Positions 58,330 to 64,000 of a DNA stretch of 64,000 bases are shown piece after piece. Under the pieces are notes generated by a model, which was given only the letters and a program-made list of their open reading frames with translations, was not told the origin of the DNA and ran no database searches. The translations under genes and the position numbers were made by a program. The stretch's first letter is position 1, and each line of letters begins with the position of its first letter. The stretch comes from Rhodoplanes sp. Z2-YC6860 (GTDB taxonomy: Bacteria; Pseudomonadota; Alphaproteobacteria; Rhizobiales; Xanthobacteraceae), in the NCBI RefSeq assembly GCF_001579845.1, contig NZ_CP007440.1, positions 1,802,001-1,866,000 on the forward strand, written 5' to 3'.

Positions 58330-58530
58330 CGGGTCGGAAATTTCGTTCCGGGATTCGCGATTGATCGGAAGGATACCAAGCAGGCCGCGGTTTTGAAAAC
58401 GAAACCGGCCTGATTCCATGGGCCGTTGGCCCACTTGCCGAAGCAGCAAACTCCGTGTTTATGGTTGGCAGGGCAGGGGTTGCATTGCGTCCGGCTTACG
58501 CTTCCGGACTGTCGGCGAGGGAAATCAGCC

Positions 58531-59124
58531 ATGACACTGCTTCGGCTCCTTTTGGGCATCAAATTTGCGCTTCTTTTTGTGCTTGCGTCGCCACAGGCCT
58601 TCGCTCAGGGCCGCGATGGTGGCGATCAGCCGGGCTACGTCCCCAATTCGGCAGACGAGCAGCTCGATCCGAAATGGCAGAAGACAGTGGTGTTCTATCG
58701 CACCACGGAAGCGCCGGGCACGATCATCGTCCAGACCAGCGAGCGGTATCTGTATGTGGTGCAGCCCGGTGGCCGCGCCCTGCGCTACGGGATCGGCGTC
58801 GGCCGTGACGGCTTCCAGTGGCAGGGGCTCTTGAAGATCACCCGCAAGCAGGAATGGCCGGATTGGACGCCGCCAGAAGAGATGATCCAGCGCCAGCCCT
58901 ATCTGCCGCGCTGGATGGCCGGCGGTCCGGGCAATCCGCTCGGCGCCCGCGCGCTCTATCTGGGCACCACGGTCTACCGCATTCACGGCACCAACCAGCC
59001 GCAGACCATCGGCACCCAAGTGTCGTCCGGCTGCTTCCGTTTGACCAATCCGGACGTGACCGATCTGTTCGAGCGCATTCCGGTCGGCACCAAGGTCGTG
59101 GTCCGGCAGCGTCCGGAAGTCTGA
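58531..59124 (+). CDS. L,D-transpeptidase (YkuD family), short copy
   Basis: A 197-residue secreted L,D-transpeptidase. The signal peptide is RLLLGIKFALLFVLASPQAF. EAPGTIIVQTSERYLYVVQP begins the YkuD domain, with YRIHGTNQPQTIGTQVSSGC and Cys168. The core (GQ..EWPDWTPP.EM..RQP.LP.WMAGGP.NPLGARA) closely matches the copy at 7083-7877, but this one lacks the long variable N-terminal region. It begins 26 bp before the AapJ-like gene and may be co-transcribed with it. Confidence 0.93.
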   Translation: MTLLRLLLGIKFALLFVLASPQAFAQGRDGGDQPGYVPNSADEQLDPKWQKTVVFYRTTEAPGTIIVQTSERYLYVVQPGGRALRYGIGVGRDGFQWQGLLKITRKQEWPDWTPPEEMIQRQPYLPRWMAGGPGNPLGARALYLGTTVYRIHGTNQPQTIGTQVSSGCFRLTNPDVTDLFERIPVGTKVVVRQRPEV

Positions 59125-59149: not shown

Positions 59150-60202
59150 ATGGCCAGATTCATCGGGCGTAATTTCACGACCGGTCTTCTGATCGGCATT
59201 ATCATCGCCATCGGTGTCGGGATCGCGGCCTATGCCTACGAGCGCTACGACACCAAGACGCTGAACCGCACGGTGCGGCGCGACGCGGTCTATTGCGGCG
59301 TCAACACCGGGCTGCCGGGCTTCTCGGCGCAGGACGACAAGGGCAACTGGACCGGCTTCGACGTCGACTTCTGCCGCGCCATTGCGGCGGCGATCTTCGA
59401 CGACCCGAAGAAGGTGAAGTTCGTGCCGCTCGACGCCAAGGAGCGGTTCGAGGAGCTCGGCAAGCGCAAGATCGACGTGCTGGCGCGCAACTCGAGCTGG
59501 ACCATGTCGCGCGAGACCGAATACTACCTGCAGTTCGCCGGTGTCTCGTATTACGACGGCCAGGGCTTCATGACGCCGCGCTCGGGCAACAAGCAGTCGG
59601 CGCTGGAGCTCGACGGCAGCAAGGTCTGCGTGCAGGACGAGACCACCACGAAGCTCAACCTCGCCGATTACTTCCGCGCCAACAACATGAAGTACGAGGA
59701 GAAGAAGTTCGGCAACATCGACGACATGTTCAAGGCTTATGCGACGGGCCAGTGCGATGTGCTGACCTCCGATGTGTCGCAGCTCTACGCGCTGCGGCTC
59801 AAGCTCGAAAAGCCCAACGAGCATGACATCCTGGCCGACGTGATCTCCAAGGAGCCGCTCGCTCCGGTGGTTCGCCAGAAGGACGACGACTGGTACCTCC
59901 TGGTGAAGTGGACGCTGTTCGCGCTGATCAACGCCGAAGAGCTGGGTATCAACTCCAAGAACATCGACGAGGCGATGAAGTCGAAGAAGCCGGACGTGAT
60001 GCGCTTCGTCGGCGCCGAAGGCGACTATGGCGAATGGCTCGGCCTCGAAAAGAACTGGGCGGCCCGCATCATCCGCCACGTCGGCAATTACGGCGAGATC
60101 TATGAGCGCAACGTCGGCTCGGGCTCCAAGCTTGGCATTCCGCGCGGCCTGAACCAGCTTTGGAGCAACGGCGGCATCCTCTACGCACCGCCGATCCGCT
60201 GA
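59150..60202 (+). CDS. AapJ-like amino-acid-binding protein with N-terminal anchor
   Basis: A 350-residue family 3 solute-binding protein of the general L-amino-acid (AapJ/BztA) type. The N-terminal TTGLLIGIIIAIGVGIAAYA looks like an uncleaved membrane helix. The binding domain contains VYCGVNTGLPGFSAQDDKGN and GFDVDFCRAIAAAIFDDPKK, later RNSSWTMSRETEYYLQFAGV. IPRGLNQLWSNGGILYAPPI closes it, as in AapJ. No AapQMP permease or ATPase genes are next to it in the window. It follows the L,D-transpeptidase gene by 25 bp and precedes a strong terminator. Confidence 0.9.
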   Translation: MARFIGRNFTTGLLIGIIIAIGVGIAAYAYERYDTKTLNRTVRRDAVYCGVNTGLPGFSAQDDKGNWTGFDVDFCRAIAAAIFDDPKKVKFVPLDAKERFEELGKRKIDVLARNSSWTMSRETEYYLQFAGVSYYDGQGFMTPRSGNKQSALELDGSKVCVQDETTTKLNLADYFRANNMKYEEKKFGNIDDMFKAYATGQCDVLTSDVSQLYALRLKLEKPNEHDILADVISKEPLAPVVRQKDDDWYLLVKWTLFALINAEELGINSKNIDEAMKSKKPDVMRFVGAEGDYGEWLGLEKNWAARIIRHVGNYGEIYERNVGSGSKLGIPRGLNQLWSNGGILYAPPIR

Positions 60203-60862: not shown

Positions 60863-62158
60863 ATGCCTTTGCTCCGCCACCCTTCGGCCCATTCCTGGGG
60901 CGCGCTCGCCCCGTTCCGGGTCCGCAGCTACCGTTACCAATGGCCCGCGGACCTTGTGACGTCCTGGGCGTTCGAAATGGAGACACTCATCCTCGGTTGG
61001 TACATGCTGGTCGAGACCAACTCCGTGGTGATGCTCACGATCTTCGGCGCGCTGCTCTATGTCGGCACGCTGATCGCGCCGCTGATCGGCGTCTTGAGCG
61101 ATCGCGTCGGCCATCGCGTGATGCTGACCGGGATGCGATCGGCTTACGCGCTGGTCGCGGGCACGCTGACGACGCTCGCCTTCACCGGCACGCTCAGGCC
61201 CGCGATCGTGCTGGTGCTGGCCTTTTTCACCGGACTTCTTCGACCATCCGACATGGGGCTGCGCGGCGCGATGATCGCCGACACCATGCCGCCCGGCACG
61301 CTTACGGCCGCGATGGGCATTTCCCGCACCACCACCGACACCGCGCGCATCTTCGGCGCGCTGACCGGCGCAGGACTGTTTGCGGCGATCGGCATCGGGC
61401 CGAGTTATATCGCCATCACCGCGATCTACGTGGTCGGCGCGATCCTGACCTGGAATGCTGTGGTGCCCGACGCGGCACGGGAGGTGCATCAGTCGAAGGA
61501 CCCCGGGCCAGAGCTCTCGCCATGGCGCGAGCTCTGGGAGGGCATGGTGCTGGTCTGGAACACGCCCAGGCTGCTCGCCATCGTGTGGTACGCGTTCCTG
61601 TTCAACTTCGCGGTGTTCCCGCTGACCAACGGCCTCATGCCTTATGCCGCCAAGGACATATTCCTCACCGACCAGAAGGGCCTCGGCTATCTGGTGGCGA
61701 GCGTCGCGCTCGGCGCTTTCATCGGCTCGCTCGGCATGACGCGCTCCGGCATGCGGACCGAGCTCGCCCAGATCATGATCGTCGCCGCGGTGATCTGGCA
61801 CATTCTGGTGCTGGTCTTCGCGCAGACGCACACGCTCGAAGCCGGCGCCGCCATGCTGGTGCTGTGCGGCTTCGCGCAAAGCCTCACGATGGTGAGCCAC
61901 ACCGTGATCCTGCTCAGCGCTTCGGATCACCGCTACCGCGGCCGCATCATGGGCGTGCGGATGCTGGCGATCTACAGCTTGCCGCTCGGCCTGCTCGTCG
62001 CCGGCGGCCTGATCAATCTCATCGGCTACCGTGCCACGGCTTCGTGCTATGCGATCGTGGGACTTGCCTTCACGGTGCTGATCGCGGTGCGCTGGCGCGC
62101 GTCGCTGTGGCAGGCGCGCACCTTCGCCGAGGCGCCGGCGGCCGGCGTGGGGGGCTGA
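60863..62158 (+). CDS. MFS transporter of the peptidase/ATP-grasp operon
   Basis: A 431-residue transporter from ATG 60863 (MPLLRHPSAH). About twelve helices are visible: MLTIFGALLYVGTLIAPLIG with LSDRVGHRVML (the loop 2-3 motif), and FFTGLLRPSDMGLRGAMIAD. The EnterobactinS/MFS_3-like pattern is typical of exporters of peptide-like or siderophore molecules, but the cargo is not known here. Its stop is five bases before the start of the metallopeptidase gene, which in turn overlaps an ATP-grasp gene, so the three form one operon. Export of an ATP-grasp product is one possible reading. Confidence 0.85.
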   Translation: MPLLRHPSAHSWGALAPFRVRSYRYQWPADLVTSWAFEMETLILGWYMLVETNSVVMLTIFGALLYVGTLIAPLIGVLSDRVGHRVMLTGMRSAYALVAGTLTTLAFTGTLRPAIVLVLAFFTGLLRPSDMGLRGAMIADTMPPGTLTAAMGISRTTTDTARIFGALTGAGLFAAIGIGPSYIAITAIYVVGAILTWNAVVPDAAREVHQSKDPGPELSPWRELWEGMVLVWNTPRLLAIVWYAFLFNFAVFPLTNGLMPYAAKDIFLTDQKGLGYLVASVALGAFIGSLGMTRSGMRTELAQIMIVAAVIWHILVLVFAQTHTLEAGAAMLVLCGFAQSLTMVSHTVILLSASDHRYRGRIMGVRMLAIYSLPLGLLVAGGLINLIGYRATASCYAIVGLAFTVLIAVRWRASLWQARTFAEAPAAGVGG

Positions 62159-62163
62159 CGCTC

Positions 62164-63216
62164 GTGCCGGATCGCAAGAAGCTCAAGACGCAAGGGAAGC
62201 GCAAACGCTGGGCCGGCTGGTCCGACGACAAGCTGCTTCAGCTTCGCTTCAAGGATCTCAAGCTCTCAATGCGCGGCAGCTGGCTCGCCGACTGCATGCG
62301 CGAGCTCAACCGCGAGCTTGCCGGTCACGGCATTCCGGTGCGGCCGCACGCGTGGCTGTCGACCGAATGGTTCAGTCCCGAACACACGCCGGGCATCGCC
62401 ATTCCGTTCTATCTCGCGCATCCGCGCCTGATGCGGCTCGAGCGCAAGATGATCATCGATGTCGAAGGCGGCACGCATGCGGAATGCATGCGCATCCTGC
62501 GTCACGAGATGGGTCACGTGATGCAGCATTCCTATGCACTTCATCGTGATCGGCGCTGGCAGCGGCTGTTCGGACGGTCCTCAACGAGGTATCCAAATTA
62601 TTACCGTCCCGATCCCGCGAGCAGGAATTTTGTTCAACATTTGCGGCTATGGTACGCGCAAAGCCATCCCGACGAGGACTTTGCCGAGACCTTCGCCGTA
62701 TGGCTGACACCGCGATCGAACTGGCGCAAACGTTACGAAGGCTGGCCGGCCTTGAAGAAGCTGCAATACGTCGACGAACTGATGGCGGAGATCGCCGAGC
62801 GCAGGCCGGTGGTGACGCGGCGCACCGAGCTCGAGCCGTTGCGTTCGGTGCGCATGACGCTCGGCGAACACTACCGCGAGAAGCTTGAGCACTATTCGGT
62901 CGACACGCCGCGTGCCTACGACCGCGACCTGATGCGCATTTTTTCCAACAGCCCGAAGCATCGCAATTCGCCGCCGGCTGCGACCTTCATCCGCCACCAT
63001 CGTGCGGAATTCCGCCGGCTGATCTCGAAATGGACCGGCGAATATCAGCTCACGCTGGACACCGTGCTCGATGAGATGATCGAGCGTTGCCGTGAGCTCA
63101 AGCTCCGCGCTGTCGGCTCCGACCGGCAGCTGCGCACCGACTTCATGGTGCTGCTCACCGCCAAGACCGTGCATTCGCTCTACAGCCCGCAGCGACGACA
63201 GTGGATCGCGCTATGA
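62164..63216 (+). CDS. Putative zinc metallopeptidase (HExxH)
   Basis: A 350-residue protein beginning at GTG 62164. The zinc motif RHEMGHVMQH has His114-Glu115 and His118, and DEDFAETFAVWL supplies the third ligand Glu175. This HExxH plus distal Glu arrangement with NYYRPDPASRNFVQHLRLWY between matches the family of putative zinc-binding metallo-peptidases (COG4307-like). No signal peptide is seen, so it is cytosolic. It lies between an MFS gene and a Ddl-like ATP-grasp gene, with the stop overlapping the latter's ATG. The substrate is unknown. Confidence 0.88.
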   Translation: MPDRKKLKTQGKRKRWAGWSDDKLLQLRFKDLKLSMRGSWLADCMRELNRELAGHGIPVRPHAWLSTEWFSPEHTPGIAIPFYLAHPRLMRLERKMIIDVEGGTHAECMRILRHEMGHVMQHSYALHRDRRWQRLFGRSSTRYPNYYRPDPASRNFVQHLRLWYAQSHPDEDFAETFAVWLTPRSNWRKRYEGWPALKKLQYVDELMAEIAERRPVVTRRTELEPLRSVRMTLGEHYREKLEHYSVDTPRAYDRDLMRIFSNSPKHRNSPPAATFIRHHRAEFRRLISKWTGEYQLTLDTVLDEMIERCRELKLRAVGSDRQLRTDFMVLLTAKTVHSLYSPQRRQWIAL

Positions 63217-64000
63217 AGAGCTGTCGCGTCCTCCTGCTCACCCATCCGGACCTGGTGCCGCCGGAATCGCTCAAGGGATTCAGCGAGGCCGAGGTCAACG
63301 TCTGGAAGACCGAATACGACGTGGTCTCGACGCTTCGCGGCGCGGGTCACGAGGTGATGCCGCTTGGCGTCGATAGCGAGCTCCGCCCGATCCGCGACGC
63401 GATCGAGAGCTTCAAGCCGAATGTGGTGTTCAATCTTCTCGAGGAATTTCACGGCGAGGCCGTCTACGACCACAGCGTGGTGAGCTATCTCGAACTGACC
63501 CGCGTGCCCTACACCGGCTGCAATCCGCGCGGCCTGGTGCTGGCGCGCGGCAAGGACCTCGCCAAGAAGCTCGTGCACTATCATCGCGTGCCGACACCGG
63601 CTTTCGCGGTGTTTCCGATGGGCCGCAAGGTCAAGCGGCCGCCGCGGCTCAGCCTGCCGCTGATCGTGAAAAGCCTCAACGAAGACGCCTCGATGGGCAT
63701 CGCCCAGGCTTCGGTGGTCGAGACCGACGAGGCCTTGGCCGAGCGCGTCACCTTCATCCATCAGCGGATCGGCACCGCGGCGATCGCCGAGCAGTACATC
63801 GAGGGCCGCGAGATCTACGTGGGCGTCCTTGGCAACGACCGCCGCCGCGTGCTGCCGATCTGGGAGCTGCAGTTCGGCGATCTCGCGTCGGGCACGCGGC
63901 CGATCGCGACCGAGAAGGTGAAGCACGACATCGAATACCAGGCGCGCCACGGCGTCGAGGAGGGCCCGGCCAAGGGGCTTACGCCTGCGATCGCGGCTCG
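63213..64000 (+). CDS. D-Ala-D-Ala ligase-like ATP-grasp enzyme (3' end beyond window)
   Basis: The first 262 codons of an ATP-grasp ligase. The N-terminal domain includes VFNLLEEFHGEAVYDHSVVS, like the Ddl pattern, then PYTGCNPRGLVLARGKDLAK. The ATP-binding part has LPLIVKSLNEDASMGIAQAS and IAEQYIEGREIYVGVLGN, both typical of the Ddl/ATP-grasp family. It is a likely C-N ligase joining two amino acids or peptides, not necessarily D-Ala-D-Ala. Its ATG overlaps the peptidase stop (ATGA). The catalytic C-terminal part lies past the right edge. Confidence 0.88.
   Translation, partial: MKSCRVLLLTHPDLVPPESLKGFSEAEVNVWKTEYDVVSTLRGAGHEVMPLGVDSELRPIRDAIESFKPNVVFNLLEEFHGEAVYDHSVVSYLELTRVPYTGCNPRGLVLARGKDLAKKLVHYHRVPTPAFAVFPMGRKVKRPPRLSLPLIVKSLNEDASMGIAQASVVETDEALAERVTFIHQRIGTAAIAEQYIEGREIYVGVLGNDRRRVLPIWELQFGDLASGTRPIATEKVKHDIEYQARHGVEEGPAKGLTPAIAA

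What the first reader, a model, noticed from the sequence alone, without database searches (positions are those of the whole stretch)
60863..64000. Operon of MFS exporter, HExxH peptidase and Ddl-like ATP-grasp ligase
The three genes are nearly fused (five-base gap, then an ATGA overlap). A peptidase beside an ATP-dependent ligase and a transporter is the outline of a system that makes, trims and exports a small peptide. Established: HExxH-x(n)-E peptidases and Ddl-type ATP-grasp enzymes exist; Iyer and Aravind described ATP-grasp amidoligase operons in general. Inferred: that these three act together, and that the product is a dipeptide or peptide tag. The right part is cut off by the window edge, so further members may follow.
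Basis: partly seen in the sequence, partly recalled or inferred. Interest (0 to 1): 0.75.

Follow-up and report, generated by a model that had tools for sequence, protein, structure and literature searches.

The report
Paired peptidase and amino-acid ligase genes
Two neighbouring bacterial genes, one for an enzyme that looks able to cut peptide bonds and one for an enzyme that looks able to make them, are kept together in distantly related bacteria, which suggests an uncharacterised cut-and-join system with a still unknown target.

Summary
In detail: MFS gene 60863-62158, five-base gap, zinc-peptidase gene (PEP) 62164-63216, ATGA overlap, Ddl-like ATP-grasp ligase gene (LIG) from 63213. LIG ends at window-equivalent 64244; an IS110 transposase gene on the other strand follows. 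The conserved unit is PEP+LIG, not the trio. Of 198 genomes of the family the same 57 carry PEP and LIG, adjacent and in order in 57 of 57. PEP is also in 60 of 247 and 59 of 246 genomes of two other phyla; 118 of these 119 carry some LIG homologue, within 2 kb in 92; in most of the rest only divergent LIGs occur. MFS is at 6 of 64 loci. No conserved third gene or precursor was found. LIG is not the housekeeping Ddl and lacks Ddl substrate motifs while keeping ATP/Mg residues. PEP has an invariant HExxH and E-D-x-x-E. In relatives without MFS a promoter-like element sits just upstream of PEP. Best reading: a cytosolic ligase-protease pair on one substrate, like RimK-RimB in logic but not in family; substrate unknown. 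A small-peptide product remains a serious rival; export is not general.

The parts
62164..63216 (+). PEP: HExxH zinc peptidase gene (350 aa, GTG start), core of the module
   Evidence: PF15887 32.5 bits (cut-off 27); H114, E115, H118, E171, D172, E175 invariant in 34 of 34; no membrane-like stretch
63213..64000 (+). LIG: Ddl-like ATP-grasp ligase gene (343 aa), core of the module; continues to window-equivalent 64244 outside the window
   Evidence: PF07478; K114, K153, E193, D284, E297, N299 invariant in 34 of 34; Ddl substrate motifs absent
63213..63216 (+). ATGA stop/start overlap of PEP and LIG
   Evidence: 45 of 57 family genomes show the same one-base overlap of the aligned coding parts
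62503..62517 (+). codons of the HExxH motif (residues 114-118) of PEP
62674..62688 (+). codons of E171-E175 (EDFAE) of PEP, candidate third zinc ligand
   Evidence: which glutamate binds zinc is inferred
60863..62158 (+). MFS transporter gene (431 aa), lineage-specific operon member, probably not part of the core
   Evidence: present at 6 of 64 loci

Best explanation
The window holds a two-gene peptidase-ligase module. LIG, an ATP-grasp enzyme of the D-Ala-D-Ala ligase fold with changed substrate pockets, activates a carboxylate as an acyl phosphate and joins it to an amine, adding an amino acid to a small peptide or to the end of a protein. PEP, a probably cytosolic zinc peptidase (likely an endopeptidase), cuts the same substrate, either to expose the end that LIG extends or to remove what LIG added. 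Translation of the two is probably coupled. Shown: the overlap, the co-occurrence, the intact catalytic residues, the lack of membrane-like stretches, the lack of a conserved third gene among loci examined. Inferred: the acyl-phosphate chemistry (from the family), that both act on one substrate, the direction, and the substrate itself. The nearest working analogues are RimK-RimB and RloC-RloA of Pseudomonas. The MFS gene is a local addition that may export something in this genus.
For: The same 57 of 198 family genomes carry PEP and LIG, adjacent and in order in 57 of 57 (two weak PEP hits, E 1.6e-4 and 2.3e-4, dropped). 64 of 64 loci picked by PEP similarity hold LIG next to it (some are the same organisms as the family genomes). 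In two other phyla 118 of 119 PEP genomes carry a LIG homologue at E<=1e-40, and in 44 of 60 and 48 of 59 one lies within 2 kb (counted). G585, G587, G701 and G785 each carry two PEP-LIG pairs. PEP and LIG identities correlate, r=0.97 over 561 pairs of 34 members (shared ancestry contributes). Catalytic residues invariant. Separate Ddl in the mur/fts cluster. LIGs lie apart from 8 Ddls with 100/99 support. No third neighbour recurs beyond related genomes in 64 or 40 further loci. A promoter-like element of fixed spacing lies 21-41 bases before PEP in 18 of 60 upstream regions against 0.19 expected, so there the pair is probably its own transcription unit.
Against: No substrate, activity or interaction is known. 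In divergent lineages linkage is loose: 16 of 67 PEP places in one sample and 14 of 63 in the other have no LIG on the contig, and 3 and 1 have it over 2 kb away. Of the 27 PEP genomes without a LIG within 2 kb, only 9 have a LIG at E<=1e-85; 17 have only divergent LIGs, many of the tandem sister type, so their presence there may not mean partnership; G1017 has none. Four genomes with a strong LIG show no PEP: G719 (on a 7.48 Mb contig), G671, G903, G1035, and G793 has a second strong LIG without a second PEP. G621 has three PEP places and one strong LIG. The one convergent-type LIG in the tree (L273) groups with tandem LIGs, not with the paired LIGs. Co-occurrence does not prove a common substrate.
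Confidence: 0.5

Rival explanations
1. Small-molecule route: LIG makes a free di- or tripeptide (for instance an osmolyte or storage peptide) and PEP processes a precursor or recycles the product; in this genus the MFS protein exports it. Close to the first reader's view.
For: Sister LIGs occur as tandem pairs (25 and 17 pairs in the two samples). Of 16 tandem loci that I fetched out of these 42, 10 have a lysine-2,3-aminomutase-like radical SAM gene and 6 a GNAT gene nearby (named by Pfam on one and two members, the rest by clustering). Ddl-type enzymes join free amino acids (established knowledge). MFS is in the operon at 6 close loci.
Against: No amino-acid-modifying enzyme or exporter recurs beside the PEP-LIG pair elsewhere. 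The PEP model resembles endopeptidases, though only weakly.
Confidence: 0.3
2. LIG is a secondary D-Ala-D-Ala (or D-Ala-X) ligase for the cell wall, with PEP acting like the VanX dipeptidase.
For: The best PDB relatives by sequence and fold are Ddl or VanA types. A YkuD L,D-transpeptidase gene lies 1.7 kb upstream of the MFS gene, and YkuD-like genes lie within the fetched stretch at 6 of 104 loci scanned, L033, L035, L036, L039, L040, L043; in L040 and L043 just before PEP.
Against: Ddl substrate motifs are absent; NCBIfam Ddl models score far under cut-off; a normal Ddl is present; LIGs form a clade apart from Ddls. 98 of 104 loci show no such YkuD gene (some loci are short, and the own stretch L002 does not reach its YkuD gene).
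Confidence: 0.1
3. The two genes are merely co-transcribed and act on unrelated substrates.
For: No biochemical link exists; unlinked copies occur in some lineages; LIG without PEP occurs.
Against: Identical presence in 57 of 198 family genomes, adjacency kept across phyla while other neighbours change, two pairs in four genomes.
Confidence: 0.1

Closest known systems
RimK-RimB (rim locus, Pseudomonas)
   Same: ATP-grasp ligase and a protease encoded together; RimB removes glutamates that RimK adds to RpsF and stimulates RimK (abstract and opening of PMC11957791; passages of PMC4741518).
   Different: RimB is a retropepsin-like aspartic protease and RimK a RimK-type ATP-grasp; here a HExxH zinc peptidase and a Ddl-type ATP-grasp. 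Substrate here unknown.
RloA-RloB-RloC (rlo operon, Pseudomonas aeruginosa)
   Same: Protease with a cytosolic ATP-grasp protein in one operon; deleting rloB or rloC rescues loss of the proteases (passages of PMC12239564).
   Different: RloA is secreted and aspartic; RloB has no counterpart here.
D-alanine--D-alanine ligase (Ddl/VanA)
   Same: Fold and ATP/Mg residues.
   Different: Substrate motifs absent; separate clade; a separate Ddl in the genome.
Peptidase_Mx (PF15887) and, by weak fold match, the lethal factor / PPEP-1 type of catalytic domain
   Same: HExxH with a downstream E-rich motif; profile match over the motif region; Foldseek best E 0.13 to 4l7a, lethal factor from E 0.2, PPEP-1 from E 0.54, all with TM-scores near 0.2-0.3 by query length.
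   Different: Only profile positions 90-164 of 236 match; the canonical Peptidase_Mx of this genome is another gene near 7.96 Mb (357 bits). No solved relative by sequence (one irrelevant hit at E 0.22).
Graspetide loci with zincin-type peptidases
   Same: ATP-grasp genes with zincin peptidase genes nearby are in print (passages of PMC8939145).
   Different: Those loci have precursor peptides; none was found here. Their families were not compared with PEP or LIG here.
ATP-grasp amidoligase operons (Iyer and co-workers 2009)
   Same: General idea of ATP-grasp gene neighbourhoods (recalled, and as cited in papers above).
   Different: The paper is not held, so whether this pair is in it could not be checked.

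Membership tests
D-alanine--D-alanine ligase | ATP-grasp fold with Mg-binding D/E/N and ATP lysines | tested here: met
   DdlA 8evx E 8e-25; K114, K153, D284, E297, N299 invariant in 34 of 34
D-alanine--D-alanine ligase | substrate motifs seen in the Ddl rows (GGxSxER[ED][VI]S near the N-terminus, NTxPGMT near the C-terminus; their role is recalled) | tested here: not met
   six LIGs shown against two Ddls: absent in LIG; N-P-N-P at the second place (N299 and N301 in 34, P300 in 33, P302 in 32 of 34)
D-alanine--D-alanine ligase | curated NCBIfam cut-offs | tested here: not met
   NF002378 123 bits against 243; TIGR01205 114 against 246
D-alanine--D-alanine ligase | uses D-alanine | not testable with these tools
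   needs enzyme assay
Peptidase_Mx (PF15887) | score over Pfam gathering cut-off | tested here: met
   32.5 bits against 27; 34 of 34 members match at E<=0.1
Peptidase_Mx (PF15887) | match over the whole family profile | tested here: not met
   residues 112-181 to profile positions 90-164 of 236; the genome's canonical member covers 4-235
RimB-RimK type ligase-protease pair | ATP-grasp ligase and protease encoded together, both cytosolic | tested here: met
   57 of 57 adjacent; hydropathy without membrane-like stretch (localisation itself inferred)
RimB-RimK type ligase-protease pair | retropepsin-like protease, RimK-type ligase | tested here: not met
   HExxH zinc type and Ddl type (RimK PF08443 matches only 12 of 34 members, best 3.9e-5)
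RimB-RimK type ligase-protease pair | shared target (RpsF C-terminus) | not testable with these tools
   no substrate data
Graspetide biosynthesis | conserved precursor peptide beside the ATP-grasp gene | tested here: not met
   120 flanks of up to 800 bases, frames of 25 aa or more, BLAST E<=1e-4; largest groups are MFS frames and one downstream gene (6 loci each); shorter or masked peptides would be missed
VanA-VanX | VanX-type dipeptidase beside a D-Ala-D-Lac type ligase | tested here: inconclusive
   no VanX-type family among PEP's Pfam matches; folds not compared directly

The most novel reading that the evidence does not exclude
PEP-LIG is a widespread, independently evolved ligase-protease switch: LIG adds amino acids to the end of a conserved cytosolic protein and PEP removes them or prepares the end, giving several phyla of bacteria a reversible terminal modification that has not been described.
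Probability: 0.22. Interest if true: 0.85.

Novelty: new variant of a known kind. Interest (0 to 1): 0.6.

Why it matters
Ligase-protease pairs such as RimK-RimB tune the ribosome by adding and removing residues. A second pair built from other families and kept in several phyla would point to an unknown peptide or protein modification. The pair is small (two genes, about 2 kb), occurs in at least one named strain (Dongia deserti SYSU D60009, L046), and offers a clear genetic test. Family names alone (D-alanine--D-alanine ligase, putative metallopeptidase) would hide it.

Tried and rejected
Housekeeping Ddl: rejected. Anti-phage defence: no PADLOC hit for the three proteins. Mobile carriage: no tblastn match at E<=1e-5 in the plasmid or phage records (records very near the own genome may be left out). 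RiPP with a local precursor: none found; that call did show a 56-aa frame before PEP shared by L077, L079, L086, L089, which lies over a conserved promoter-like DNA element. Larger operon past the edge: not seen. Constant third partner: none beyond related genomes in 64 loci or 40; recurrent neighbours are ABC-transporter-like, lytic-transglycosylase-like (named by eye), TauE-like and YkuD-like genes in subsets. A sample of 398 genomes of the window's own phylum gave only 9 with PEP, all of the own family, so the wide spread rests. PDB: profile A1 gave only one irrelevant hit, E 0.22. Viral fold library: nothing at E<=0.001. Literature: no paper on the pair in the listings (20 of 54 listed; open-licence PMC only); one search lists one paper naming Peptidase_Mx (PMC2701414), which I did not open. 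Iyer 2009 not held. Papers seen: PMC11957791 abstract and opening text; PMC4741518, PMC12239564, PMC8939145 passages; PMC4431377 a term search without hits; all others listing only.
Full report
What is there. The window is G000:C1:1802001-1866000 of an 8.19 Mb single-contig genome; its nearest named relatives by PEP are MAGs labelled Xanthobacteraceae, Rhodoplanes piscinae and Alphaproteobacteria. In the whole genome LIG is complete (343 aa, window-equivalent 63213-64244) and is followed by an IS110 transposase gene on the minus strand and a TauE-like gene (named by eye). In L034 and L036 the TauE-like gene lies after LIG without the IS.

What the conserved unit is. Of 64 loci compared (own locus, 43 loci, 20 family loci; all picked by PEP, some from the same organisms), LIG lies directly after PEP in 64, while MFS is found in 6: the own locus and L033-L037, with PEP at 77% identity or more. 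Four of the 64 begin inside PEP (L054, L066, L074, L075) and L048, L051 and L060 have under 400 bases upstream, so an upstream gene cannot be seen well there. Among 30 short family loci MFS is again in 6, the same lineage. Of 9 same-genus genomes with PEP, 6 have MFS, L019 and L027 do not, G163 starts inside PEP.

Co-occurrence in the family. Of 198 family genomes PEP was found in 59 at E<=0.001; two weak ones (1.6e-4, 2.3e-4) were dropped. LIG at E<=1e-40 was found in 57. The two sets of 57 are identical, and the genes are adjacent, same strand, in this order in 57 of 57; 45 show the one-base overlap of aligned coding parts that ATGA gives. There are about 10^50 ways to draw 57 of 198, but the genomes are related and not independent.

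Wider spread. Of 398 genomes of the window's phylum 9 have PEP, all of the own family. In the phylum of G587 (the genome of L061, titled Acidobacteria) PEP is in 60 of 247, in that of G590 (L065, titled Pirellulales) in 59 of 246. Other loci carry titles Gemmatimonadetes, Myxococcota and Deltaproteobacteria. LIG homologues at E<=1e-40 are in 87 and 89 of the same genomes; 60 of 60 and 58 of 59 PEP genomes have one, G1017 not. Of 67 PEP places in the first sample LIG is within 2 kb downstream on the same strand in 41, convergent in 7, farther on the contig in 3, on no shared contig in 16; of 63 in the second 46, 2, 1 and 14. Counted by genome from these lists, 44 of 60 and 48 of 59 have a LIG within 2 kb of a PEP. 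Of the other 27 genomes, 9 have a LIG at E<=1e-85 elsewhere (G609, G745, G728, G623, G725, G1079, G921, G971, G843), 17 have only more divergent LIGs, many in tandem, and G1017 has none; for these 17 the presence of a LIG may not mean partnership. Of the 60 best loci 55 have LIG directly downstream, one convergent, four none within 1.5 kb; those four genomes have LIG elsewhere. Against the pairing: strong LIGs without PEP in the genome in G719 (7.48 Mb contig), G671, G903, G1035 (three of these neighbourhoods), a second strong LIG without a second PEP in G793, and three PEP places with one strong LIG in G621.

Two pairs in one genome. G585 and G587 carry, besides the main pair, a second pair at about 37-39% identity to the window's proteins, whose LIGs group with the Acidobacteriaceae type (100/99). 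G701 and G785 also have two pairs. Identities of PEP and LIG across 34 matched loci correlate, r=0.97 over 561 pairs; common descent gives part of this.

The ligase. Best solved relatives are Ddl, VanA and kin; the AlphaFold2 model (pLDDT 90.4, pTM 0.88) matches P. aeruginosa DdlA with E 8e-25, TM 0.76/0.85. K114, K153, E193, E200, D284, E297 and N299 are invariant in 34 of 34. The N-terminal GGxSxER[ED][VI]S block and the C-terminal NTxPGMT block of the two Ddls aligned with it are absent, with N-P-N-P at the second place; NCBIfam Ddl models score far under their cut-offs. The genome's own Ddl lies elsewhere (PF07478), in a cluster whose other genes I recognise by eye as murG, murC, murB, ftsQ, ftsA, ftsZ and lpxC. 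In a tree of 66 rows (64 different) 8 Ddls lie on one side of a 100/99 branch; 36 PEP-linked LIGs plus the G719 singleton form a 37-row group with 100/99; the one LIG of the convergent type (L273) falls with tandem LIGs at 88/85 (long branches warned of).

Sister ligases. More divergent LIGs occur as tandem pairs, 25 in the first sample and 17 in the second. Of 16 such loci that I fetched (L257-L272), 10 have a gene of one cluster identified as lysine-2,3-aminomutase-like radical SAM and 6 a gene of one cluster identified as GNAT. This suggests small modified amino acids or peptides in that branch (inference) and keeps the small-peptide rival serious.

The peptidase. No solved relative by sequence. 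The model (pLDDT 86.1, pTM 0.77) has no PDB match at E<=0.001; the best are 4l7a, a putative zinc peptidase (E 0.13), anthrax lethal factor (from E 0.2) and PPEP-1 (from E 0.54), all weak, and phage proteins titled lethal factor in the viral library (from E 0.058). These only hint at a gluzincin endopeptidase. H114, E115, H118, Y143, Y147, H159, Y164, H168, E171, D172, E175, R188, R190, Y191 and Y237 are invariant in 34 of 34. The highest 19-residue hydropathy over 34 members is 1.37 for PEP and 1.29 for LIG, against 2.56 for the MFS protein, so both are probably cytosolic.

Own promoter in relatives. In the 300 bases before PEP, GTTGT[TC]G - 14 bases - TGA[CG]A occurs in 18 of 60 loci with enough upstream sequence, always with 14 bases between (8-16 were allowed) and 21-41 bases before PEP; the whole of these loci holds 20 matches in 1.86 Mb counted on both strands, and 0.19 would be expected in the 60 regions. 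The pattern was drawn from an alignment of 11 of these loci, so the independent part is 8 loci (L040, L042, L043, L049, L051, L082, L084, L092). The window has no + strand match. So in relatives without MFS the pair seems to have its own promoter or regulator site; what binds it is unknown.

Search for partners and precursors. No neighbour family recurs beyond related genomes in 64 loci or 40 further ones. YkuD-like genes are found at 6 of 104 loci scanned. No conserved frame of 25 aa or more stood out in 120 flanks apart from neighbouring genes and the frame over the promoter-like element.

Mechanism and comparison. The simplest account is two cytosolic enzymes with opposite or sequential peptide-bond chemistry on one substrate that is encoded elsewhere or is a metabolite. 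Ligase-protease pairs of this logic are known: RimK adds glutamates to RpsF, RimB removes them and stimulates RimK (PMC11957791 abstract; PMC4741518 passages), and in the rlo operon loss of RloB or the ATP-grasp protein RloC rescues loss of the proteases (PMC12239564 passages). The present pair may work like these but is not a member: protease and ligase come from other families. I found no paper on it in the searches named under Tried and rejected. Substrate, direction and role are open.

Noticed in passing
18 loci (L040, L042, L043, L049, L051, L077, L079, L081-L084, L086, L088-L093), 21-41 bases before PEP: Promoter-like element GTTGT[TC]G - 14 bases - TGA[CG]A of constant spacing before PEP in 18 of 60 loci, 0.19 expected; no + strand match in the window, where MFS precedes PEP.
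   Followed up: partly
   Followed up: partly
G000:C1:7964541-7965284 (L144 7428-8582, minus strand): A second, canonical Peptidase_Mx gene (357 bits) with a cysteine-rich, zinc-ribbon-like start; no Dala_Dala_lig_C match near it, other ATP-grasp families not tested.
   Followed up: partly
window-equivalent 64432-65499 (L002 4433-5500, minus strand): IS110-family transposase gene directly after the ligase gene, not at this place in L034 and L036.
   Followed up: partly
58525-59124 and 59150-60202: YkuD L,D-transpeptidase gene and a family-3 solute-binding protein gene upstream; YkuD-like genes also at 6 of 104 loci scanned, in L040 and L043 just before PEP.
   Followed up: partly
L199 (G1022:C23): Both genes of the pair are interrupted here (in-frame stop in the peptidase, split ligase match): shared decay or a sequence error.
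   Followed up: no
L206-L208 (G609, G745, G728): PEP and LIG 4 to 18 kb apart; ABC-transporter-like genes lie between or beside them in these genomes.
   Followed up: partly
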